DNA from: Fidelibacterota bacterium | GTDB taxonomy: Bacteria > Fidelibacterota > Marinisomatia > Marinisomatales > UBA1611 | Direction: 5' to 3' | Assembly (NCBI GenBank): GCA_002708715.1 | Contig: PAPB01000022.1 | Span: forward strand, 10,112-74,111 | DNA length: 64,000 bases | Shown here: positions 4,979 through 56,821 of the stretch, piece by piece | Layout of the letters: each line of letters opens with the position of its first letter | How positions within the stretch are numbered: position 1 is the first letter of the stretch | Notes under the pieces: generated by a model | What the model was told of the DNA's origin: nothing | Databases searched by the model: none | What the model saw: the letters and a program-made list of their open reading frames with translations, nothing else | Position numbers and translations under genes: made by a program

Positions 4979-7900
4979 CTACTTCAAGAATAACATTTTC
5001 TTTGTTGATTTATATTGCCCAGCATGAATTGAATAAAAATACATTCCAGTTGATACCTGACTACCCAATTCATTTTTTCCATCCCAAATAATTGCATGAT
5101 ATCCAGGAGTCATATTTCCTGAAACTAATGTCCTTATTTTCTGACCCATCATATTATAAACTGCTAAACTAACATAATCAGACTCTGGAATATCAAATCT
5201 AATTTCAGTCGTAGGGTTAAATGGGTTTGGAAAATTCTGCTGAAGAGCAAATCTAGTTGGGATTGCCTTGATCTCTGAAGAATTTTCACGTGTTAAGGTT
5301 CGAACAATATTACCATCTGCACCAGCAATCTTTATATCTTTCAAAGAAACTGATGAGACTTGATATTCATTACCTTTGAAATGTAAAGGAATCGTAACAT
5401 AATTATTATTTTTACTATTTATAGATCCAGAATTAAGATTAGCCACAACTATCTTATACTTATCTTGACCTATTTTCTTAGAAGTAATCATGACATCTTC
5501 TTGTATTTCCGATAAGCCAGTAGAAAGAATATCCACCATATCAGCATCATAGTCTAATTCAATTTCTAATCCTCTTATAACACCTTGGTATTCAATAGCA
5601 ATCGAGAGCTCTGAATTTTTATAATCTGTTAGCATATCTACAAATGCAATTTCATTATTATCAAAGTCCATCGTTCTTGCATTACCACCATAAATAATAT
5701 CAACCATCATAATAACATCAGCAATATTAATCTCTTCATCCATATTTACGTCAACATTTCGAAATTCATCTTCTGTAGGAAAGTCTTCTTCTAGGATAAA
5801 GTCAACAACAGCGAGGACATCATTAATATCTGTATCGCTATCAAAATCAGCATCACCAAGTGCATATGGCACGGCACAAGCTACATTAGAATGGCGCGAC
5901 TCAAGCTGTCCATAGTTATCGGTATTCCAAAAAGCTGAAACATTATAACAGTATTCAACATAATTAGGACTTGCAGCAACAGTAGCAAATGTATCCGTAG
6001 TAGATACTATATACGTTTCATTGCCTTCTAAGTCAACCTCATAAATACGATATTCAACAAGGTCATCTCTATCCATATCAGTTGGTACTGGGTTTAATGG
6101 TTGATATATCTGATTAAGGTTTATTATGTTTTCTAGCTGTTCTGTTTCTCTATTATTTTCAATATTAGAGTTATTATAATTTGAAATAATACCAGAACTA
6201 ACCATCTCATCTTCAATAAGATCTCCTGAAGCATTCATCGCATAATTTAGACCAGGTGCTCCAAGAAATTGAGCTAGAATACCAAAATCTCCAGTTAGGC
6301 CAGGATCACCGCCTACCACATCAAAAATTGTGGCCCATGTAACACCATCAGTTGTAACCCAATTGCGATCATAAAATTCTGAGCTTTGAGGTTCTGTATC
6401 ATTTGCAATCCCTAAAAAGCCACTACCTGCCTCATTCACCACTACATAAATATCACCACTAGCAACTTCTACACCTGCTCCTGAAACATCAAGCTGATAT
6501 TGAACCAATACATCAGGCGCAGATAAGTCTGCGGATGGAACCAAATTAATTGGTTCACCAACAGGACCACCAACAGAACCACTTGGGTCTAAATATATAT
6601 CAACAGACGCTGCTACAGCAGTTGCACCACCCTGAAAGGATAGGACCAGACCAGTTAACAGTGCTGGATAGTTAGGAGGTGTAAAACGCACAGAAAATGA
6701 ACATGGAGCACCGCAACCTATTTGCGCTTCAAAATTATCATCGTAGTATGCCATATCGTATAGAGCAGCACCTCCTGGCTCACGCCACTCTAAATAGACT
6801 TCTTCATCAAGAGGATAGGCATTTAGGCCAACAGGAGAAGGCATATCAGGACTCATTACAAAATCTTGCAGTGTAGGATCTGCCTGAGCAAGTACCTCAA
6901 CATCTTCAGTCGCTGTATAAAAACCTGAACGACGTACTTGCACTGTATTGGTACCAACGTCAAGATTCCATAGATAATAAACACCATCAGCACCTGTTGT
7001 GTCTGATGCACTTCCTGAGGTTACAATTACACTATCTAATACTGCACCATTTGGATCTTTTACTACTCCAGTCACATCACCAAATACATACACTGGCTGC
7101 GCTGTAACATTGACAGGATCGCTCTCATAATTAGCTTCACCTGGAGCACCTTCATATACTGCTGTAACCCCAAAAACATACTGCAGTTCATTATTTAAAT
7201 CATATACAGTGTAGTTAGTTGAATCGAAAGCTTCATCATTATCTAATGTGCCATCAACATATACATTATAGCCCATGAAATCATACTCATTTCTGCTGTC
7301 CCTTCCAGGAGCTGTTACAGAAAAATTATCCACTCGATGCCAGTTTAAATCAAATGAATCAGCTCCATAAGCATGAAATCTAAAAAACAAACTACCTGAT
7401 AGACCTGTGATATCATAAGAATAATTTGTAAAGTCAAAACTATCACCACTATTATCAAATAAATCTAATACAGTCCACTCTGCGTCTGAACCAGTTTTAT
7501 ATTCGATAGAAAAATACTCAGCACCACTTGGAGACCAAATATTAAGTTCATAATCAAATGAGACAGTAACAGATGTCAAAGCACCTAAAGGTATGACAGG
7601 AGCATAAAGACTCTGATCGTAATTTTGAACAGATGGACTCCAATTAAATATCATACTTGGGGCAGGATTTCCTGTGGCCTCATCATAGAGCCAATTATCT
7701 CCACCATCAACAAGCCATAGATCTAACAATCCACCCTCATCAAAAGACTCTGTGTATGGAACACCTAAATTATTTACATCAGGAGCTGTCCAATAAAGAG
7801 AGACTTCTTCATCCCAAACTTCTGCATACACATTCGTGGGTGGAGCAGGTTCCCAGCTATTAGGTGTACCACATCCTGTATCTGTTGCCTCAGAAGAGCC

Positions 7901-8755
7901 TTCATCATACACTGTTTTTACATAATAACAGTACTCTGTACCATTGGTTAAATTGCCATGAGTAAAAGATAACCCATCTGTTGAAGTAAGAAGAGTATTA
8001 CTAACTGCATCATAGACTTCATATGTAGCAAATGTGCCACATTCTTCTGGAATATCTCTTAAACTATTCTGAGCTGCATATCTTAGAGGATCCATAACAA
8101 TATCTGTATATGCATCAATCTCTTCCTGAGAAAATCCAGTGTCAGCCATTTTTTGTTGCTCAGTTATCCAAGCTGTCTTAACTGAATTGGCAAGCGGATT
8201 GCTTTGTCGTGCTCCAGCAACACTTACAGATAATTCATAATTACCCGTAGCACCACCATAGCCATCAACCACCACATAATACTGACCTGGTTGTAAAGTA
8301 ACTCCAAATAAACCACTTGGAGGGTATGGAGCTTGATATTCTGGACAGTTAGTATAATCATCATCATTATAGTTTCCTGTAGAGGTTGGGGCAACACAAT
8401 CTTGATCACTTGTGAAAATTTCTAATTTTGTATCGTAATCTGTAACCATTGAACATAGGGTAAAATCAAAAGTAGTTGCTTGACCAACATTCAAGGTATA
8501 GGCTACATCCTCTCCTTGCGATCCCGATACAGGCCAATTATCTCCAGTACCTGTATTATTTCCCTGATGCGTATAAGGTAATTCATTAATAGCATAGTCA
8601 CCACAACCAATGTTCCCAACTGGTTCTCCCCAAGAAACAATGTTTTGCTGATCTCCACCAAAGACATTGATACTCGATGGAGGACATAATTCCTGTGAAA
8701 ATGAATATTGATTAAAAGAAAAAAGAAGCGTTAGAAATGTTAGCCTTATTTTCAC
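4979..8755 (-). CDS. secreted multidomain exoprotein with dockerin-like repeats and T9SS-type sorting domain
   Basis: A 1258-residue exported protein of unknown function. A signal peptide (MKIRLTFLTLLFSFNQYSFS) is followed by a pre-peptidase C-terminal-like region with VAYTLNVGQATTFDFTLCS (about 70-180). Next come fibronectin type III-like stretches, a carboxypeptidase-regulatory-like domain (VTGVVKDPNGAVLDSVIVTS, about 560) and a jelly-roll-like section. Two dockerin-type calcium loops (GDADFDSDTDINDV and NVDMDEEINIADV) precede a cohesin-like strand domain. The FlgD-like sorting tail starts at NFPNPFNPTTEIRF and ends KKMLFLK. The start is GTG with GGAG 8 nt upstream. It lies 111 nt after the M1-peptidase fusion gene and ends at a strong terminator. 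No catalytic motif was recognised, so it may be an adhesin, a glycan-binding protein or a structural surface protein. A cargo role for type IX-like secretion is inferred from the tail only. Confidence 0.85.
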   Translation of the reverse strand: MKIRLTFLTLLFSFNQYSFSQELCPPSSINVFGGDQQNIVSWGEPVGNIGCGDYAINELPYTHQGNNTGTGDNWPVSGSQGEDVAYTLNVGQATTFDFTLCSMVTDYDTKLEIFTSDQDCVAPTSTGNYNDDDYTNCPEYQAPYPPSGLFGVTLQPGQYYVVVDGYGGATGNYELSVSVAGARQSNPLANSVKTAWITEQQKMADTGFSQEEIDAYTDIVMDPLRYAAQNSLRDIPEECGTFATYEVYDAVSNTLLTSTDGLSFTHGNLTNGTEYCYYVKTVYDEGSSEATDTGCGTPNSWEPAPPTNVYAEVWDEEVSLYWTAPDVNNLGVPYTESFDEGGLLDLWLVDGGDNWLYDEATGNPAPSMIFNWSPSVQNYDQSLYAPVIPLGALTSVTVSFDYELNIWSPSGAEYFSIEYKTGSDAEWTVLDLFDNSGDSFDFTNYSYDITGLSGSLFFRFHAYGADSFDLNWHRVDNFSVTAPGRDSRNEYDFMGYNVYVDGTLDNDEAFDSTNYTVYDLNNELQYVFGVTAVYEGAPGEANYESDPVNVTAQPVYVFGDVTGVVKDPNGAVLDSVIVTSGSASDTTGADGVYYLWNLDVGTNTVQVRRSGFYTATEDVEVLAQADPTLQDFVMSPDMPSPVGLNAYPLDEEVYLEWREPGGAALYDMAYYDDNFEAQIGCGAPCSFSVRFTPPNYPALLTGLVLSFQGGATAVAASVDIYLDPSGSVGGPVGEPINLVPSADLSAPDVLVQYQLDVSGAGVEVASGDIYVVVNEAGSGFLGIANDTEPQSSEFYDRNWVTTDGVTWATIFDVVGGDPGLTGDFGILAQFLGAPGLNYAMNASGDLIEDEMVSSGIISNYNNSNIENNRETEQLENIINLNQIYQPLNPVPTDMDRDDLVEYRIYEVDLEGNETYIVSTTDTFATVAASPNYVEYCYNVSAFWNTDNYGQLESRHSNVACAVPYALGDADFDSDTDINDVLAVVDFILEEDFPTEDEFRNVDVNMDEEINIADVIMMVDIIYGGNARTMDFDNNEIAFVDMLTDYKNSELSIAIEYQGVIRGLEIELDYDADMVDILSTGLSEIQEDVMITSKKIGQDKYKIVVANLNSGSINSKNNNYVTIPLHFKGNEYQVSSVSLKDIKIAGADGNIVRTLTRENSSEIKAIPTRFALQQNFPNPFNPTTEIRFDIPESDYVSLAVYNMMGQKIRTLVSGNMTPGYHAIIWDGKNELGSQVSTGMYFYSIHAGQYKSTKKMLFLK

Positions 8756-47996: not shown

Positions 47997-48755
47997 TTAG
48001 GATACCAATGAAAACATACCTATAAGAATGCAATAAAACCCAAAATAATGAAATTTCCCTTTGGCCAACCATTTTAATAACCATTTCAAAGCTACTACTC
48101 CAACAATAAAAGAACTAATTAAGGATGCAAACCCTACTGACGGTAAAATACTAAAGCTATGGTTTGCATCAATAAAAGTTAATAAACCAGCACCCGAAAT
48201 AACGGGAATTGCCATTAGAAATGAAAATCGAGCTGCTTCTTTAGCATTAATTCCTAACAAAAGTGCGCAGCATATAGTCATACCACTTCTTGAAATACCT
48301 GGCGTAATTGCAATTGCCTGAGCAAAACCAATTATTATTGAAGAAAAGATAGTATGGCTAATATTTTTCGGTTTAAAATATTTTGAAGATATAAGAATCA
48401 ATCCTGTTATAATTAAAGAAAAGCTAACTAATATAGAATTATCAAAAAATGCTTCAAGCATATTTTTAAAAGTAAAACCAATGATAATTGAAGGGACTGT
48501 GGCAATCAATAATAAAAAAATGAAAAATTGATTACTTTTTAATTTAATTCCAAAAATCAAAAACTTAATATCTTCAAAAAAAACCACGAATATACTTGCT
48601 AGAGTACCCATATGCACTAATACTTCAATTTCATTTCCTGGGTTATCTATATTTAAAAAATTTTGAATTAAAACTAAATGCCCTGAACTACTAATTGGAA
48701 GGAACTCTGTTATACCTTGCACTATTCCTAAAATAATTGCTTCAATATATGTCAT
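47997..48755 (-). CDS. uppP: undecaprenyl-diphosphate phosphatase
   Basis: A 252-residue BacA-type membrane enzyme that recycles undecaprenyl pyrophosphate to the monophosphate for cell-wall and glycan synthesis. Both catalytic motifs are present: GIVQGITEFLPISSSGHL near the N-terminus and AIAITPGISRSGMTI near residue 165. It follows pgeF after 3 nt. The cofactor it regenerates is the same lipid carrier used by the DPM1-like transferase at 39612. Confidence 0.97.
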   Translation of the reverse strand: MTYIEAIILGIVQGITEFLPISSSGHLVLIQNFLNIDNPGNEIEVLVHMGTLASIFVVFFEDIKFLIFGIKLKSNQFFIFLLLIATVPSIIIGFTFKNMLEAFFDNSILVSFSLIITGLILISSKYFKPKNISHTIFSSIIIGFAQAIAITPGISRSGMTICCALLLGINAKEAARFSFLMAIPVISGAGLLTFIDANHSFSILPSVGFASLISSFIVGVVALKWLLKWLAKGKFHYFGFYCILIGMFSLVS

Positions 48756-48758
48756 ACA

Positions 48759-49460
48759 TTAATTCTTTTTAAATGTTCTATATCCAATTAAGCCAATCAT
48801 TCGATCTGTTGTTCCTCGAGATCTTCTATAGGACCAATAATTATCTTCCATGCAAAATGTACAATCAGGAGTAATATGGATCGCTTCCTTTAAAAAACCT
48901 ACTTTGATTAAATTATCAAAAGCTATTTTTTGAAGATTGACTTGATACTTTCTATTTTTTTTTAATTTTAAATATTTTTTTGGAAATTTATCTGCAACAT
49001 CAATTCCAATTTCAAAACAACAATTTTGAATAGATGGTCCAATAATAATATCAAAATTCTTCAAATTATGCTTGGAATTTTTTAATAATATAGCTGTTTG
49101 TTTAATAATTCCATTTATTAATCCTCTCCATCCAGCATGGATAATACCATATACTGTTTTATTTTGATGAGCAAAATATATTGGCATACAGTCGGCAACT
49201 TTTATTGAACATACAATTTTTGGATTCGTAGTAAATACTCCATCACAATCTTCAAAAACTCCAGCTGAATTAGATAAGATTACATTAGTTGTATGTTTCT
49301 GCATAGGAACAATGAGAATATTTTCCTTGAAACTATATGAATTAAATTTAGATGAAAGTACCTTATTAATTCCGTCATTATTTTTTTTTGTTATAAATTG
49401 GGCCAGAATTTGTGGATTATTAAAATTATTAAAAATATTCAGTAAATTATCTTGTTTCAT
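48759..49460 (-). CDS. pgeF: peptidoglycan editing factor PgeF (laccase-domain)
   Basis: A 233-residue zinc-binding protein of the YfiH/PgeF family, which in other bacteria removes mis-incorporated residues from cell-wall precursors. Metal and active-site residues appear in VADCMPIYFAH and IIHAGWRGLINGII, followed by IGPSIQNCCFEIG. The C-terminal DNYWSYRRSRGTTDRMIGLI is typical. ATG overlaps the LppC-like stop as ATGA. Its neighbours LppC-like and uppP make a coherent cell-wall group. Confidence 0.95.
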   Translation of the reverse strand: MKQDNLLNIFNNFNNPQILAQFITKKNNDGINKVLSSKFNSYSFKENILIVPMQKHTTNVILSNSAGVFEDCDGVFTTNPKIVCSIKVADCMPIYFAHQNKTVYGIIHAGWRGLINGIIKQTAILLKNSKHNLKNFDIIIGPSIQNCCFEIGIDVADKFPKKYLKLKKNRKYQVNLQKIAFDNLIKVGFLKEAIHITPDCTFCMEDNYWSYRRSRGTTDRMIGLIGYRTFKKN

Positions 49461-51295
49461 TTTATTTTATATTTAAATATTACCCCATCATACATACCTA
49501 CATTTTTTATATTCTTATTTGAATATTGCAATACTTGTGCCAAAATATTTTCATTTTTATTTTTACCTGAAAACCCTATAGATAATTTTTCTCCGTAATA
49601 TTCTTTATTAATCTTTAGAGTTTTTAAAAAATGTTTTCTATTATTCGAACCTTTTTTAATAATCTGTTCTAAATATTTAACATGCTCTTTTGAAATATTA
49701 TAATAATGAATAAATACGTCACCATCATTAAAATCTTCAACAGAATTAACATCGGTTATTATATGCATTCCTTGAACATGAGGTCCTATTACTTCTTGAT
49801 TTAGTAATTTCATATCTAACCAATTTTTATTACCAAAAATAGAAGTTTTTAAATTATAAAATGGTAATTGAGTACCAACATATGTTAATTCATTTGGTCT
49901 AATTGGGATATATAATGCTTGAATAGTGGCTAACTCAACTTTAGATGAATCTTTTTTATCCATCTTTTCATCCTCTTCTTTAGGAAGAGCAAAAAAGTCT
50001 TTAACATCAACATCAAAAAGAGCATCTAAACTATCAATCTCTAAGTTAACAAAATCACTACTTTCATCCTCTTTTGGAATTAATTCCCATGCCTTTTTCC
50101 TAATATTCTTTAATTGTCTTGATAAATTAATTGGTTTATCTATATACCATTCAATAGCAATTGGATCAATACCTAACTGATGGCATTCATTTAAAAAATA
50201 ATCAGTTATTAATTTATTATGCCCATCCCCAGGTGATAAAACAGCAATAGTTTTATAGCCTAATTCTTTAATAATCATTTGAGCTGTGCGTTCAGCCATA
50301 GTTTTAAAAGATGGTGAAAGAAAAAAGATGTTTTCATTAAGATCTGATATTCCAACTGGTGCATTATTTGGAACTAAAATTGGAATATTGAGATTAGTAC
50401 CAGCAATAGTATAAATTTCTTCATTAGTTAAAGGTCCAAGAATAGCTGAAATCAAATTATTTTTATTAATATCTTTAACAATTTTCAAAGAATTAATACC
50501 TAACCCCGCACTGTCATAAATAATAAAACGAATTAATGGTACCTCTAGAGACTCTGAAAGTCCTAATAAATATGAAGAGCCCATATCTTTTTTATTTCCT
50601 GAAAGAGGAATTATCACCCCTATAGTGGTAGGACCATTTACATATTCTTTTTCTAATTTTAATAAATTCCCATACAATTTTGAAAATTTCCCAGGCAAAT
50701 AATATGTATCAATATCATTTAATATAAATTCTACTGCATAATTATCGCCTTTAATCCAAGCTTGGTAAGCTCTAGCAAGATTAATTATTGTGCGATTAAA
50801 TATATTCCTCTCCCTAAAAAGGATTCCTTCAATATTTTCTTCCTTCAGCCCTAAAGCGATACAATTATATAATCTTTGGTCAATTTCATTTATGAATGAT
50901 AAATCCTTAATTAAAGGTCTAGCAATAATATAATTTTTAAAAGCTTGTGACACTTTTCCTTCATTAAGAGCACAATCACCCAATAATAAATATGTATCAA
51001 ATTCATATGGAGATCCTGGATAATTAGCTAATATAGCTTTACATGTACGCCTAGCCTCACCCCATAGCCCTTGTTGGTTTTGAGATTTTGCAATTAAAAG
51101 CTGAGAGGCAGGGTCTCTATAGTCTCTATCATTTTTTAAAATATTTTTAAAAACACTCTCAGCCAGCTGATATCTACCTTCTTTATAGTATTCAACAGCT
51201 TGATTAAATTTTTGATAATATGATTTTTGATCCGTTTCGACTGCAATGATCGTTGATTGAAATAGAAAGATAAAAAGTGGTACTAATTTTATCAT
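49457..51295 (-). CDS. LppC/PBP-activator-like protein: TPR plus periplasmic-binding-protein domain
   Basis: 612 residues. A signal peptide is followed by N-terminal TPRs (KFNQAVEYYKEGRYQLAESV, then SPYEFDTYLLLGDCALNEGK). A type I periplasmic-binding fold follows from about 215: TTIGVIIPLSGNKKDMGSSY, then LISAILGPLTNEEIYTIA, NIPILVPNNAPVGI and IIKELGYKTIAVLSPGDG. This TPR-plus-PBP layout is that of LpoA/LppC-type activators of penicillin-binding proteins and of related leucine-binding-like receptors. An acidic Ser/Asp/Glu-rich insertion (about 405-455) is unusual. Coupling by ATGA to pgeF supports a cell-wall role. Confidence 0.82.
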   Translation of the reverse strand: MIKLVPLFIFLFQSTIIAVETDQKSYYQKFNQAVEYYKEGRYQLAESVFKNILKNDRDYRDPASQLLIAKSQNQQGLWGEARRTCKAILANYPGSPYEFDTYLLLGDCALNEGKVSQAFKNYIIARPLIKDLSFINEIDQRLYNCIALGLKEENIEGILFRERNIFNRTIINLARAYQAWIKGDNYAVEFILNDIDTYYLPGKFSKLYGNLLKLEKEYVNGPTTIGVIIPLSGNKKDMGSSYLLGLSESLEVPLIRFIIYDSAGLGINSLKIVKDINKNNLISAILGPLTNEEIYTIAGTNLNIPILVPNNAPVGISDLNENIFFLSPSFKTMAERTAQMIIKELGYKTIAVLSPGDGHNKLITDYFLNECHQLGIDPIAIEWYIDKPINLSRQLKNIRKKAWELIPKEDESSDFVNLEIDSLDALFDVDVKDFFALPKEEDEKMDKKDSSKVELATIQALYIPIRPNELTYVGTQLPFYNLKTSIFGNKNWLDMKLLNQEVIGPHVQGMHIITDVNSVEDFNDGDVFIHYYNISKEHVKYLEQIIKKGSNNRKHFLKTLKINKEYYGEKLSIGFSGKNKNENILAQVLQYSNKNIKNVGMYDGVIFKYKIK

Positions 51296-51339: not shown

Positions 51340-52212
51340 TTAATATGTAATATAAGTTAATTTGCCATATTCAAACTGATAATAGATTTTTTTATTGGAT
51401 ACATTATAAATCCATTGCTCGCTTATACCATGCCTACTAGAAGTAAAATTAATTTCATCAGGGTACCCTTTAGCTATTCTAACCTGTCTTTCTGTCATTC
51501 CTATTTCAGTTTGATTATTTTTTATTTTATCGATAACTGTATTAGGCCATTTAGTTGGCAAGGGATCCATTAAGAAATAATTATCCTTAATACCAAAACG
51601 CACACCTTGGATATTATAACGAACCAAAGCTGTTTCTCCATTTTCATTAGAAACCTTTAACCATATAGGATGACCGTTATCAGCATTTTGAAACTTAACA
51701 ATATCAATTACGTTTACTTTTTGAAACCGAAAAAAATCACTATTAATATTTGCATGAAATCCATTCTTATCCAAAATATCATTCAACCAAACCATTCTCC
51801 CAATCAATTTTTTTGCGCTAAGAAAAGTTTCATTAAATACTATAAAACTCGGAATTGAAATCTGAGAATTAATTGTATTAGTAAGCGATACCTTGTACTG
51901 CTTATTCTTACTATCTTTAAATACAAGATATATGTTTTTTTGAGTCCTAAAAGATCCAACTATAATAAATTTTTTTTCTGTAAAACGATAATAAGGTTTA
52001 AACCTTCGAGAATGGATTTTAGAAAATATTTTGTTAAAGCGTTTTGTCTTTTTATATGATTCATCTAAATCGGCTATATAAATTTCTTTACCAGACCATT
52101 CGTTTAACGATATGTTATCTATTTTGTTTTTGAATAAAAAACAATTTGAGAAAAATAATGATAAAAATATAATGAGAATCTTTAAAAATGAACTCATATC
52201 CTTTCTTATCAT
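51340..52212 (-). CDS. putative lipoprotein with SmpA/OmlA-like C-terminus
   Basis: 290 residues with a lipoprotein signal (LKILIIFLSLFFSNC, lipobox FSNC). The middle is beta-rich and unfamiliar. The C-terminal ~60 residues IGMTERQVRIAKGYPDEINF and EQWIYNVSNKKIYYQFEYGK follow the pattern of SmpA/BamE/OmlA domains (GMTxxQVxxxxGxPD...WxY). BamE-type proteins assist outer-membrane protein insertion, but whether this one does is unknown. The ATG overlaps the stop of the MORN reading frame as ATGA, so it is coupled to that gene. A second in-frame ATG at 52197 sits too close to its AGGA to be likely. Confidence 0.6.
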   Translation of the reverse strand: MIRKDMSSFLKILIIFLSLFFSNCFLFKNKIDNISLNEWSGKEIYIADLDESYKKTKRFNKIFSKIHSRRFKPYYRFTEKKFIIVGSFRTQKNIYLVFKDSKNKQYKVSLTNTINSQISIPSFIVFNETFLSAKKLIGRMVWLNDILDKNGFHANINSDFFRFQKVNVIDIVKFQNADNGHPIWLKVSNENGETALVRYNIQGVRFGIKDNYFLMDPLPTKWPNTVIDKIKNNQTEIGMTERQVRIAKGYPDEINFTSSRHGISEQWIYNVSNKKIYYQFEYGKLTYITY

Positions 52213-52775
52213 TCTATTGGCTTACCATTCTCCCAAACACCAACTCTTTTATCTCCATTGGGATAGGTAAATGTTCCCTGGCCCTCCATATTACCATTTT
52301 TAAATTCACCAACATATTTATTGCCATTTGAATAAGTAAAAACTCCTAATCCTTCTCTTTTTCCTTCTACAAATTCACCAATGTATAAATTCCCATTTGT
52401 AAAAGAGTAACTACCTTTTCCTTCCATAATACCATTAACAAACATACCTTCGTATTCATTACCATTTAAAAAAGTATATTTACCCTGCCCATTAATTTTA
52501 TCCTCTTTCCATTCACCTATATATGAAGATCCATCTGATAATATTAGAGTACCAAATCCATCTCTTTTACCATTATTAAAAGTACCATCATATCTATCAC
52601 CGTTAGAAAAAATAAATATACCTTGACCATTTAATTTACCGTTTAAAAAATTACCTTCGCATACTCCACCATTAGAGAATTGATATTTACCTTTTCCAGT
52701 CATTTCATTATTATCCCAAGAACCAACATATAAATCTCCATCTACAAATTCATATTTACCATTATAATGTTTCAT
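52209..52775 (-). CDS. C-terminal part of the giant MORN-repeat protein (separate frame)
   Basis: 188 codons made entirely of MORN repeats (DLYVGSW, YDGTFNNGKRDGFG, YIGEWKEDKINGQG, and others; eight visible), ending NGDKRVGVWENGKPIE. Its ATG lies inside a repeat, at the point where neighbouring repeats read W-K-N-D-M, and there is no signal peptide. It is therefore not a convincing independent gene. The same frame stays open upstream to 52829 and continues the repeat pattern of the 1183-codon ORF after a one-base shift. I read it as the 3' end of that gene, made into a separate ORF by the frameshift; joined, the protein would be about 1371 residues. Confidence 0.85.
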   Translation of the reverse strand: MKHYNGKYEFVDGDLYVGSWDNNEMTGKGKYQFSNGGVCEGNFLNGKLNGQGIFIFSNGDRYDGTFNNGKRDGFGTLILSDGSSYIGEWKEDKINGQGKYTFLNGNEYEGMFVNGIMEGKGSYSFTNGNLYIGEFVEGKREGLGVFTYSNGNKYVGEFKNGNMEGQGTFTYPNGDKRVGVWENGKPIE

Positions 52776-55700
52776 ATCATTCTTCCATGACCCTTCATAT
52801 CGATCTCCAATAGAAGAATGAAAAACACCTTTCCATCTTTTTTACCAAACTTCCAATCACCTTCATAGGTATCACCTATAGAATTAGAATAAGTTCCCTT
52901 GCCATGAAAAATATTATTTTTGAAATTCCCTTTATATATTACATCATCAATAATAAAAGTTGCATTTCCAAACCCTTCCTTTTTACCATTATACCAAGCA
53001 CCTTCATAAGTATCACCATTTGCATATTTTAATATGCCTTTCCCGTGCTTTAAATCATTTTTCCAATCACCTTCATAAATATCACCTATAGAATTAGAAT
53101 AGGATCCCCTACCATTCCTCATATCATTTTCCCAATCACCTTTAAAAATATTGCCTTTGGAATCAGTATATATCCCAAATCCATCCTTTATACCATCTTT
53201 CCATTTACCTTTATATATATCTCCATTTTTATAAGATTGATGTCCCTCACCCATTTTTACATTTTGATACCAAGAACCAGTATATCTATCTCCATTTTTA
53301 TATATATATATACCTTCACCATGCTTTTTATTTGCCAACCAATTTCCTTCAAAAGTTTCCCCATTTGCATATAAAATTTTTCCCTGACCTTCCATTTTCC
53401 CATTTTTCCATTTACCCTCGTATCTATTACCATTTTTAAAATCCATCTCACCAAAACCATTTTTTTTATCATCTTTCCATTCGCCTTCATAATGTTCACC
53501 ATTATTAGATATTAATATTCCTCTACCATTACGTCTATCCATCAACCACTCACCTTCATAAGTATCACCATTTAGATATTTAAATGACCCGCGACCATTA
53601 AATTTATCCTCTTTCCAATTACCCACATATCTATTACCATTGATAAATAAATTTTCAGCATCTATTTTTTTATCTTTTTTATTACCAGCGAAAATATATG
53701 TACCCTCACCTTCTCTTTTCCCATTTTTCCAATAACCTGAATAACGATGTCCTAAGTAATCAGTGAATGTTCCTTCTCCATGCTTTTTATCACCTTTCCA
53801 TTCGCCAACATATTTATCCCCTTTTTCATTTGTGAATGTTCCTTTTCCATTCTTTTGACCATTTTTCCAATAACCCGAATATTTTGTTTCACTACTAACA
53901 AAAGTACCTCTGCCGTTTTTTTGCCCATCAATCCATTCACCATCATAAATATCTCCATTTGAATAATTATATATACCAATTCCTTGCATAACACCCTTTA
54001 ACCAATCTCCATCATAGAATTCACCATTAACAAAAGAGTGCTTCCCTTTTCCATATCTTTGATTATCAACCCACTCACCTTCATATTTACCACCATCAGA
54101 ATAGGTATATATTCCTGTTCCATATCTTAAACTATTTTTCCATTCTCCTTCATATACACTGCCTGATGCATATATCATTTTACCTTGACCATTTATTTGA
54201 TCATTTTCCCAATTACCTAAATAATTACTACCATTTGGATAAGTCTGTAGCCCTAAACCATTTCTTTTATCTTTAAACCACTTACCTTCATATTTTTCTA
54301 AATTAGATGAAATAAAAATACCGTCACCTTCTTTTAAATTCTCATGCCATTGGCCAATATATTCATCACCATAAACAGTGTTAAATTTGCCATTGCCATC
54401 TCTTTTCCCATTTACCCATCCACCTTCATAAATATCTCCATTTGCATAATTATAAATACCTTCACCATAAAATTGACTATTCTTCCATTCTCCTTTATAT
54501 GAATTTCCGTCTAAATCATAGAACACACCATATCCATTCATCGCATCACCTGTCCATACTCCTTCATAAGTACGACCATCTATATATGACATCATTCCTT
54601 GTCCCTCTAATTCACCTCTTACAAAAGAACCTTTATATTTTTTCCCATCAGAATAACTTAATATACCCTGACCCTCTTTCATGCCTTGAACCCAATCTCC
54701 TAAATAAATATCTCCATTTGTATAATTATAATTACCATAGCCATCCATTTTGTCATTTTTCCATTCACCATTATAAATATCACCATTTAATATTTCATAT
54801 TTCCCTTCGCCATTACGTTTACCATTTAAAAAAGATCCTTCATATACATTACCATTTGCATAATTATAAATACCATAGCCAGTTCTTTTATCCTCTTTCC
54901 ATTCACCTTCATAACGACTACCATTAGTGAAAATATATAGTCCATGTCCATGCATTTTCCCTTCTAACCATTCACCAACATAGGTTTCACCCAAATATGA
55001 CCTAAAAGATCCATGTCCATTTAGCCTCCCATCAGAAAAGTATCCTTCGTAATTATTTCCACTAGAAGAAGTATATATTCCTTCTCCTTCCATTTTATCA
55101 CTTTCCCATTGTCCATGGTACTCATTACCATTAATAAAATTATATGAACCCCATCCATGCATTTTCCCTATATCAAAATCGCCTTCATACTTATCACCAT
55201 TTTCGTAATTATAGATTCCATAACCATGAATTAATCCATTTTCCCATTGCCCACTATATGATGCACCACTTTCATAAATAAACGTACCTTGACCATGCCG
55301 CAAATCATCTTTCCATTCACCTTCATATAAATTGCCATTAGGATATTTAAAAGTCCCAATACCATTTTTCACGCCATCCCAAAATTCACCCTCGTAAGTA
55401 TTGCCATTTTTAAAAGTAAATATTCCTAAACCTGATCTTTGTCCTTTTTTATACTCACCTTCATATTTTTCTCCATTTGTATAGGTGAATACTCCATTAC
55501 CATCTTCTTTACCATTAATAAATTCACCTACATATTTATTACCATTTTTAAAAATATATGTTCCTTTGCCATGACTTTTATCATCTTTCCACTGACCATG
55601 ATACTCATTACCATTAAAAAATTTATAAATGCCATTCCCTTCCATATTTCCATTAACAAATTCTCCTTCATACTGGTCTCCGTTTAAATAATTAAAAATA

Positions 55701-56235
55701 CCTTTACCATGTTTTTTACCATCAACAAAATCACCTTTATAAATATTACCACTTTTAAAAGTATAAGAACCGAAGCCATTCATCTCACCAGATTGAAATT
55801 CTCCATCATAGATATTCCCTTTCCCATCACTTGAAACGCCATGACCATGTTTCTTATCATTTATCCAATTACCTATGTATTTTCCTCCAAAAGGATAAAT
55901 ATAAGTTCCAAGACCATCTTTCTTATTATTTTTCCATTCGCCAATATATGAATTACCAAAAGGATAAAAATATGTTCCCTCACCATGTTTCTCTCCCTTT
56001 AACCATTCTCCTTCATATTTTTCTCCCCCAATAATATATAGGATACCCCATCCATTAAAGTGATCATTTTCAAAAGTACCAATATATGTATGACTATCAT
56101 TATTAAAAGTTAAAGTTCCTTCTCCATGCATTTTATCATTTAACCAATTTCCATCATACGTGTCACCATTTGAGTATACAAATTTTCCATTTCCATGCCT
56201 TTTTCCATTCTCTAAACCACCATTGTAATTAAAAC
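52215..56235 (-). repeat. tandem array of about 57 MORN-coding units
   Basis: The region is a near-continuous array of ~69-nt units (23 codons), consensus Y-x-G-x-W/F-x-x-x-x-x-x-G-x-G-x-x-x-x-x-x-G. By hand I count 48 YxGxW/F-type units before the frameshift and nine after. The only long interruption is a 10-15 residue insertion (NKKDKKIDAENLFI) at about 53640-53690. The units are diverged in DNA, so this is an old protein repeat and not recent satellite expansion. Confidence 0.9.
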
Positions 56236-56323
56236 CATATTGCACGATATCCTTTGGTGGATTATAATTTTGAGAAACAAGCACTGATAATAATAATAGA
56301 CTTAGTATGCAAAAAGCTTTCAT
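52772..56323 (-). CDS. giant secreted MORN-repeat protein, main reading frame
   Basis: 1183 codons, of which about 1165 are genuine; the last ~18 are out of frame (see the frameshift entry). An N-terminal signal peptide (MKAFCILSLLLLSVLVSQ) means the protein leaves the cytoplasm. Everything after residue 30 is MORN repeats such as YEGEWKDDLRHGQGTFIYES and YIGEWKNNKKDGLGTYIYPF, with no attached catalytic domain. MORN arrays form elongated beta solenoids that bind lipids or act as spacers, so a rod-like periplasmic or surface filament is likely. Lys, Glu, Asp and Asn dominate the variable positions. It is followed, with ATGA coupling, by a SmpA-like lipoprotein that may anchor or assemble it. 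The region upstream (56324-56608) is A+T-rich and holds its promoter. Confidence 0.88.
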   Translation of the reverse strand: MKAFCILSLLLLSVLVSQNYNPPKDIVQYGFNYNGGLENGKRHGNGKFVYSNGDTYDGNWLNDKMHGEGTLTFNNDSHTYIGTFENDHFNGWGILYIIGGEKYEGEWLKGEKHGEGTYFYPFGNSYIGEWKNNKKDGLGTYIYPFGGKYIGNWINDKKHGHGVSSDGKGNIYDGEFQSGEMNGFGSYTFKSGNIYKGDFVDGKKHGKGIFNYLNGDQYEGEFVNGNMEGNGIYKFFNGNEYHGQWKDDKSHGKGTYIFKNGNKYVGEFINGKEDGNGVFTYTNGEKYEGEYKKGQRSGLGIFTFKNGNTYEGEFWDGVKNGIGTFKYPNGNLYEGEWKDDLRHGQGTFIYESGASYSGQWENGLIHGYGIYNYENGDKYEGDFDIGKMHGWGSYNFINGNEYHGQWESDKMEGEGIYTSSSGNNYEGYFSDGRLNGHGSFRSYLGETYVGEWLEGKMHGHGLYIFTNGSRYEGEWKEDKRTGYGIYNYANGNVYEGSFLNGKRNGEGKYEILNGDIYNGEWKNDKMDGYGNYNYTNGDIYLGDWVQGMKEGQGILSYSDGKKYKGSFVRGELEGQGMMSYIDGRTYEGVWTGDAMNGYGVFYDLDGNSYKGEWKNSQFYGEGIYNYANGDIYEGGWVNGKRDGNGKFNTVYGDEYIGQWHENLKEGDGIFISSNLEKYEGKWFKDKRNGLGLQTYPNGSNYLGNWENDQINGQGKMIYASGSVYEGEWKNSLRYGTGIYTYSDGGKYEGEWVDNQRYGKGKHSFVNGEFYDGDWLKGVMQGIGIYNYSNGDIYDGEWIDGQKNGRGTFVSSETKYSGYWKNGQKNGKGTFTNEKGDKYVGEWKGDKKHGEGTFTDYLGHRYSGYWKNGKREGEGTYIFAGNKKDKKIDAENLFINGNRYVGNWKEDKFNGRGSFKYLNGDTYEGEWLMDRRNGRGILISNNGEHYEGEWKDDKKNGFGEMDFKNGNRYEGKWKNGKMEGQGKILYANGETFEGNWLANKKHGEGIYIYKNGDRYTGSWYQNVKMGEGHQSYKNGDIYKGKWKDGIKDGFGIYTDSKGNIFKGDWENDMRNGRGSYSNSIGDIYEGDWKNDLKHGKGILKYANGDTYEGAWYNGKKEGFGNATFIIDDVIYKGNFKNNIFHGKGTYSNSIGDTYEGDWKFGKKDGKVFFILLLEIDMKGHGRMI
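52826..52834 (-). other. single-base frameshift inside the MORN gene
   Basis: On the minus strand the sequence is GGAAAGGTG. In frame 1 it reads Gly-Lys-Val, and the repeat pattern is lost within a few codons. Re-reading the G at 52829 gives Gly-Lys-Gly-Val-Phe-His, restoring the MORN consensus (DGKGVFH...GDRYEGSWKND). One missing base in the A/G run explains it. A six-A run lies just upstream (52838-52843), but its AAAAAAG is not in the frame needed for a classical -1 slippery heptamer. Confidence 0.85.
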
Positions 56324-56389: not shown

Positions 56390-56566
56390 TTATACTTTAT
56401 AAAATATATCTTTTGATAAATAAATCACTAACATAAATAAAAATAAAATACAAAAGGAAATAATATAAAAATTGGAATCTATTTTAGAATGAAATATTAC
56501 CCATGTAATACATCCTACCAAAACAATTATAGATATGTTTAATAAAGCTAGTTTTAGGTACTTCAT
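56390..56566 (-). CDS. possible small two-helix membrane protein
   Basis: A 58-codon ORF in the 285-nt gap between the YigZ remnant and the MORN gene. It reads MKYLKLALLNISIIVLVGCI at the start, then a short polar turn (FHSKIDSNF), a second hydrophobic helix and a basic end (LSKDIFYKV). The positive-inside pattern and two helices are protein-like. No Shine-Dalgarno lies at a useful distance, and A+T-rich DNA readily produces hydrophobic ORFs, so this is tentative. Confidence 0.33.
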   Translation of the reverse strand: MKYLKLALLNISIIVLVGCITWVIFHSKIDSNFYIISFCILFLFMLVIYLSKDIFYKV

Positions 56567-56608: not shown

Positions 56609-56821
56609 TTAAAAGTACTTTAATTTATAATTATTTATACCGTATTCAACTATTATATAAGCCCAACATATATGATTAGCATCATAATGAAATCTTTTGA
56701 TTCGAGACAACCAAGATTTAAAATCTATTTTTGATTCACAAAAACGTATATATGCAATAAATCTAGATTTCTTTATTTTATATCCAGTTTGTAAAGAATT
56801 GTTAGGTATAAAGCGCTTCAT
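56609..56821 (-). pseudogene. truncated YigZ/IMPACT-family (UPF0029) remnant
   Basis: 70 codons that match only the first third of YigZ/IMPACT N-terminal domains: KKSRFIAYIRFCESKIDF, then the signature HYDANHICWAYII. In full-length family members (~200 aa) a DDGEPSGTAG-type segment follows. Here the reading frame runs into NNYKLKYF and a stop, and I find no continuation in the other frames. The ATG still overlaps the der stop as ATGA, so the fragment may be translated. It may be a decayed gene or a retained mini-domain. Confidence 0.65.

What the first reader, a model, noticed from the sequence alone, without database searches (positions are those of the whole stretch)
51340..56323. Giant secreted MORN solenoid coupled to a SmpA-like lipoprotein
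A signal peptide followed by about 57 MORN repeats (roughly 1371 residues when rejoined) with no enzymatic domain is unusual; most MORN proteins are intracellular with far fewer repeats. The next gene is a lipoprotein with a BamE/SmpA-like C-terminus in ATGA overlap, followed by LppC-like, PgeF and UppP genes. I infer an exported rod or filament and its anchor, possibly a previously undescribed envelope-spanning or surface structure.
Basis: partly seen in the sequence, partly recalled or inferred. Interest (0 to 1): 0.72.

Follow-up and report, generated by a model that had tools for sequence, protein, structure and literature searches.

The report
Giant fixed-length exported MORN rod
Uncultured ocean bacteria of the phylum Neomarinimicrobiota export a huge rod-like protein made of exactly 57 repeats, encoded next to a lipid-anchored partner and cell-wall genes; it is probably an envelope scaffold about 50 nanometres long whose purpose is still unknown.

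Summary
Window 56323-52209 (-) encodes a signal peptide plus 57 MORN repeats. A one-base frameshift near 52830 splits the gene into 1183 and 188 aa. Six relatives carry it as one intact 1372-1380 aa ORF, so the break is local. Eight orthologues in four genera align with no whole repeat gained or lost at 54-94% identity. The next gene is a true lipoprotein (invariant lipobox Cys), adjacent to the array in all 10 such genomes. It is older than the array, though: found only in this family, and in other genera it sits beside MORN_2 repeat proteins or none. Its BamE resemblance is fold-level and below the Pfam cutoff. In two other families, exported MORN proteins (once themselves lipoproteins) occupy the same spot before PgeF-UppP, so the deeper link is to a cell-wall locus. 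The protein lacks the T9SS tail matched 78 times in this genome and evolves about as slowly as GuaA, favouring the periplasm over the surface. From MORN crystal dimensions a straight rod would be about 51 nm. Best reading: a fixed-length envelope scaffold anchored by the lipoprotein. Location, binding and function are untested. New variant of a known kind.

The parts
52772..56323 (-). First 1183 aa of the giant MORN protein: signal peptide and repeats 1 to about 48; the last ~19 codons are read out of frame after the frameshift
52209..52831 (-). Remainder of the giant MORN protein in the shifted frame (repeats 49-57); listed as a separate 188 aa ORF 52209-52775
   Evidence: conserved in six intact orthologues
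52829..52832 (-). Site of the one-base frameshift that splits the gene in this assembly; intact in six relatives
56270..56323 (-). Sec-type signal peptide (residues 1 to ~18, MKAFCILSLLLLSVLVSQ), type conserved in seven orthologues
   Evidence: by eye
51340..52212 (-). Partner lipoprotein (LIPO), 290 aa: lipobox Cys24, N-terminal beta domains (SH3/Tudor-like), C-terminal ~60 aa of OsmE/BLIP-SmpA-like fold
49457..51295 (-). TPR plus type I periplasmic-binding protein, LppC/LpoA-like (below cutoff), signal peptide without lipobox
48759..49460 (-). PgeF (peptidoglycan editing factor, PF02578)
47997..48755 (-). UppP/BacA (undecaprenyl pyrophosphate phosphatase)
56390..56566 (-). 58 aa two-TM ORF just upstream of the MORN gene; similar small ORFs sit there in g4 and g10

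Best explanation
The protein is exported by Sec and folds into one uninterrupted MORN beta-hairpin solenoid, a stiff rod of 57 repeats and about 50 nm if straight. It stays in the periplasm as a structural scaffold in the cell-wall/outer-membrane layer. Too long to stand upright in a normal periplasm, it most likely lies along the envelope or coils. One end, most likely the almost invariant C-terminal repeats 56-57, docks on a partner; the co-encoded lipoprotein, which would tie it to a membrane (probably the outer one), is the best candidate. Repeats 1-21 and 34-40 are conserved binding surfaces, while 22-33 and 41-46 work mainly as spacer. Shown: sequence, repeat register and number, conserved signal-peptide-like N-terminus, conserved gene pairing, purifying selection, absence of a T9SS tail. 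Inferred: periplasmic location, rod shape, docking to the lipoprotein, scaffold role.
For: 57 repeats in register in 8 proteins of 4 genera at 54-94% identity with no whole-repeat gain or loss; the only internal indels are 1, 2 and 6 residues. Same-register repeat identity 0.56-0.68 against 0.38-0.40 otherwise; repeat 57 is 0.94 conserved. Exposed positions in 22-33 and 41-46 are only 0.24 identical against 0.50 in 1-21 and 0.76 in 56-57. dN/dS 0.13 and 0.085, close to GuaA 0.083 and below the lipoprotein's 0.26 and 0.15. AlphaFold predicts continuous beta-hairpins, pLDDT 77.6; best PDB matches are MORN1 crystals. 80 A per 9 repeats and 25 nm per 28 repeats (PMC7725318) give about 51 nm. Lipoprotein adjacent in all 10 genomes with the array. 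In family f8 the MORN protein at the same locus itself starts with a lipoprotein signal; in f16 an exported MORN sits next to PgeF-UppP. No T9SS tail against 78 matches in the genome.
Against: No localisation, binding or expression data. The lipoprotein occurs without the array in g11, g5 and g6, so docking is not its only role. The model's pTM is 0.30 and the first three repeats are poorly predicted, so rod against superhelix is unresolved. The two g9 copies (truncated by contig ends) do not align in register, and f16/f8 MORN proteins differ in length, so fixed length is not general. A second MORN protein of 761/767 aa also has no internal gaps, so low repeat turnover alone could keep the number constant.
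Confidence: 0.42

Rival explanations
1. Cell-wall synthesis scaffold: the solenoid organises or guides peptidoglycan assembly together with the LppC-like protein, PgeF and UppP, and the lipoprotein is a secondary partner.
For: Exported MORN proteins lie directly upstream of PgeF-UppP or of LppC-like-PgeF-UppP in three families, f1, f8 and f16, in 21 of the 41 MORN-bearing genomes of the phylum sample, although size and lipoprotein differ. LppC/LpoA proteins activate peptidoglycan synthases (established knowledge).
Against: PgeF and UppP act in the cytoplasm and inner membrane and are housekeeping; the order may simply be inherited. The LppC-like protein misses the LppC cutoff and lacks a lipobox. 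Most genomes of the phylum lack MORN altogether (204 of 245).
Confidence: 0.23
2. Surface fibre or adhesin: the rod is carried to the cell surface and projects outward, like other long repeat proteins; the lipoprotein tethers it.
For: About 51 nm exceeds the usual periplasm; MORN_2 proteins are found in Fusobacterium outer-membrane vesicles and are suspected in adhesion (PMC10434195).
Against: No T9SS tail although the genome has 78 matches to it, no autotransporter barrel, and no Pfam domain but MORN; evolution about as slow as GuaA is unlike exposed adhesins.
Confidence: 0.15
3. Independent neighbours: array and lipoprotein are simply in one operon and do not interact.
For: The lipoprotein is found without the array in several genera; MORN_2 genes, two small genes or MotAB lie between in others.
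Against: All 10 giant arrays lie next to it, often with start/stop overlap; 16 of 20 readable loci have a secreted MORN or MORN_2 gene just upstream and two more have weak MORN_2-like genes nearby.
Confidence: 0.15
4. Lipid or glycan conduit: the long groove carries a polymer or lipid between membranes, like TamB/AsmA-type bridges.
For: MORN solenoids have a groove about 16 A deep along their length, and TbMORN1 co-purified with phosphatidylethanolamine (PMC7725318).
Against: The groove is filled by stacked aromatics (Y 95%, W/F 98% at its key positions here); the same paper found no binding to lipid vesicles; the genome has its own TamB.
Confidence: 0.05

Closest known systems
Eukaryotic MORN1 (Trypanosoma, Toxoplasma, Plasmodium; 6t4r, 6t6q, 6t4d)
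   Same: Same 23-residue repeat, best sequence and fold matches, elongated solenoid
   Different: 15 repeats in TbMORN1, cytoskeletal, no signal peptide; this one has 57 and is exported
MORN_2 (YwqK-type) exported proteins, e.g. of Fusobacterium nucleatum vesicles
   Same: Exported repeat proteins of envelope or vesicles, function unproven (PMC10434195)
   Different: Different repeat family (PF07661). MORN_2 proteins are separate neighbours of this gene in relatives
TIC100 of the chloroplast import machinery (8z9y)
   Same: A MORN-containing protein of a double-membrane envelope (weak match)
   Different: Few MORN repeats in a larger multi-subunit machine; no lipoprotein partner
OsmE/BamE (SmpA-OmlA) lipoproteins, for the partner
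   Same: C-terminal ~60 residues fit the OsmE fold (4dm5, probability 0.98, E 0.16)
   Different: Below the BamE Pfam cutoff; 290 aa with extra SH3/Tudor-like N-terminal domains; no solved relative by sequence
Rhs/teneurin YD-repeat shells
   Same: Long beta-hairpin repeat arrays; aligned over >1000 columns
   Different: rmsd ~50 A and TM ~0.1, so overall shape is not shared; no other domain here

Membership tests
MORN repeat proteins (PF02493) | Repeats above the curated score | tested here: met
   702 and 173 bits, cutoff 22.5; 57 repeats
MORN repeat proteins (PF02493) | Beta-hairpin solenoid fold | tested here: met
   AlphaFold strands throughout, top PDB matches MORN1; predicted, pTM 0.30
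BamE/SmpA (PF04355), for the lipoprotein | Curated Pfam score | tested here: not met
   13.1 bits against 23.2; 6 of 17 members match at E up to 1, best 0.0043
BamE/SmpA (PF04355), for the lipoprotein | BLIP/SmpA-like fold | tested here: inconclusive
   OsmE match probability 0.98 but E 0.16 over 59 columns
Bacterial lipoprotein | Signal peptide with invariant lipobox Cys | tested here: met
   Cys24 invariant in 17 sequences
LppC/LpoA, for 49457-51295 | Curated Pfam score and lipobox | tested here: not met
   23.9 bits against 28.8; no Cys at the signal-peptide end
T9SS cargo | C-terminal sorting domain TIGR04183 | tested here: not met
   No hit in the first ORF; the C-terminus is a MORN repeat in all orthologues; none of the 78 genome hits lies there
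Fixed-length ruler protein | Constant repeat number while surface diverges | tested here: met
   8 proteins, 4 genera; does not extend to the g9 copies
Fixed-length ruler protein | Changing its length changes the length of another structure | not testable with these tools
   needs genetics

The most novel reading that the evidence does not exclude
A fixed-length envelope ruler: a 57-repeat, ~50 nm exported MORN rod with functional ends and a length-conserved but surface-free spacer, tied to the outer membrane by a dedicated lipoprotein and setting a distance or spacing in the cell wall of marine Neomarinimicrobiota. No such periplasmic MORN structure was found in the held literature.
Probability: 0.17. 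Interest if true: 0.75.

Novelty: new variant of a known kind. Interest (0 to 1): 0.5.

Why it matters
MORN solenoids are known structurally almost only from inside eukaryotic cells, and the structural literature speaks of 2 to over 20 repeats (PMC7725318). A 57-repeat exported version with fixed repeat number across genera of an uncultured marine phylum, paired with a lipoprotein and next to cell-wall genes, points to an undescribed envelope component. It can be tested directly by expressing the protein and measuring rods, and by searching marine metaproteomes.

Tried and rejected
Chance or low-complexity artefact: rejected (702 bits, register kept in 8 genomes). Assembly-made repeat expansion: rejected, since a single-cell genome (AG-404-J18) and several MAGs give the same length. 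Programmed frameshift: no support, since relatives read straight through. BamE, LppC/LpoA and T9SS-cargo membership: tested and not met. Phage origin: phage tblastn gave three records, short or weak. Plasmids gave 25 records with MORN proteins, mostly piecewise matches. PDB sequence search with the lipoprotein profile and the LppC-like protein: nothing. Homology of the lipoprotein C-terminus to the 112 aa neighbour protein: hhalign E 0.002 but probability 13.5, inconclusive. Literature search for Marinimicrobia with MORN: no paper. Promoter and terminator scan: at chance level.

Full report
What is there. The window lies in a 2.47 Mb genome; named relatives of the locus are Candidatus Neomarinimicrobiota/Marinimicrobia MAGs and a single-cell genome. 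On the minus strand, 56323-52772 encodes 1183 aa and 52775-52209 a further 188 aa; both are MORN repeats and nothing else by Pfam. The frame is lost at about 52829-52832. In G001, G005, G009, G015, G020 and G023 the same gene is one ORF of 1372-1380 aa, so the joined 1371-position reading is right and the break is a local mutation or assembly error.

Repeat anatomy. The joined protein has 57 full 23-residue repeats after a signal-peptide-like N-terminus. Seven orthologues (one truncated at its N-terminus) align with it over 1385 columns; the only internal differences in length are 1, 2 and 6 residues. Pairwise identity runs from 54 to 94%. A repeat resembles its counterpart in another genome (0.56-0.68) much more than other repeats (0.38-0.40). 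Conservation is patchy: repeats 1-21, 34-40 and above all 56-57 keep exposed residues, whereas 22-33 and 41-46 keep the framework but little surface (0.24 same register, about 0.14 other register). That is what a spacer between functional parts would look like, but a second exported MORN protein (761/767 aa) also shows no internal gaps between two genera, so slow repeat turnover may explain the constant number. The two g9 copies, cut by contig ends, do not fit the register.

Selection. Between two close genomes dN/dS is 0.133 for MORN, 0.263 for the lipoprotein and 0.083 for GuaA; for a more distant pair 0.085, 0.154 and 0.083, with dS above 1 in that pair and hence near saturation.

Structure. 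AlphaFold on an alignment of 7 sequences gives mean pLDDT 77.6, continuous hairpins from residue ~100 and a break at 879-896; pTM 0.30 leaves the overall shape open. The best solved relatives are MORN1 crystals. With 80 A per 9 repeats and 25 nm per 28 repeats (PMC7725318), 57 repeats would be about 51 nm if straight. The periplasm width used for comparison (20-30 nm) is my own knowledge.

The lipoprotein. Its lipobox Cys is invariant in 17 sequences. By sequence it is clearly present only in this family (23 genomes), with weaker matches elsewhere confined to its C-terminus. AlphaFold pLDDT is 84.4; Foldseek finds no match below E 0.001, but the C-terminal part fits OsmE/BLIP-type folds and the N-terminal part resembles tandem SH3/Tudor barrels. 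BamE membership is not met.

Pairing. Of the 23 genomes, 10 have the MORN array directly upstream; one (G018) has MORN, then a MORN_2 protein and two small genes; five (g11) have a 610-627 aa MORN_2 protein and two small genes; two (g5) have weak MORN_2-like genes beyond MotAB; three are cut by contig ends; two (g6) have neither. No giant array was found without the lipoprotein, but the reverse is common. In g4 the order is GuaA, MORN_2 protein, a two-TM protein, giant MORN, lipoprotein, LppC-like, PgeF, UppP.

Deeper association. In family f8 (G051, G167, G198, G199, G201) a MORN protein (867 aa or more in G198, 5' cut) sits before LppC-like-PgeF-UppP; where its N-terminus is held (G051, G199) it begins with a lipoprotein signal, and there is no separate lipoprotein gene of this kind beside it. 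In f16 (G094, G153, G162, G221, G222) a 265-281 aa MORN protein with a signal peptide (N-terminus cut in G094) sits before PgeF-UppP. So 21 of the 41 MORN-bearing genomes of the phylum sample have it at this locus. Inheritance of an old gene order or a functional link to the cell wall would both give this.

Location. The genome has 78 matches to the T9SS sorting tail, and one such protein lies in the window (4979-8755). The MORN protein has none. Together with the slow evolution this favours the periplasm over the surface. This is an inference, not a measurement.

Verdict. The finding is real and somewhat stronger than stated (fixed repeat number, conserved locus), but the anchor and spanning ideas are unproven and the lipoprotein pairing is one-directional. 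It is a new variant of the MORN solenoid, with moderate interest.

Noticed in passing
window 56609-56821 (-): 70 aa fragment of a UPF0029/YigZ gene (35 bits, 42 of 107 positions); apparently a truncated gene between Der and the MORN gene.
   Followed up: partly
window 56390-56566 (-): 58 aa two-TM ORF; similar 65-82 aa ORFs sit upstream of the giant MORN gene in g4 and g10, none seen in G001.
   Followed up: partly
L045 4135-6438 (-), L046 5568-7853 (+): A second exported MORN protein, 767 and 761 aa, 55% identical, no internal gaps between two genera.
   Followed up: partly
L060 3958-6657, L043 3349-6190: Conserved trio before the lipoprotein in g11/g7: MORN_2 protein of ~611 aa, 155-187 aa protein, 110-112 aa coiled-coil protein with a SmpA-like end.
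   Followed up: partly
L077 (DPMX01000114.1): Record titled Gammaproteobacteria UBA11873 holds the lipoprotein at 45% identity; probably a misbinned Neomarinimicrobiota contig.
   Followed up: no
window 4979-8755 (-): Large secreted protein with a T9SS type A sorting tail (28.4 bits, cutoff 23); 78 such tail matches in the genome.
   Followed up: no
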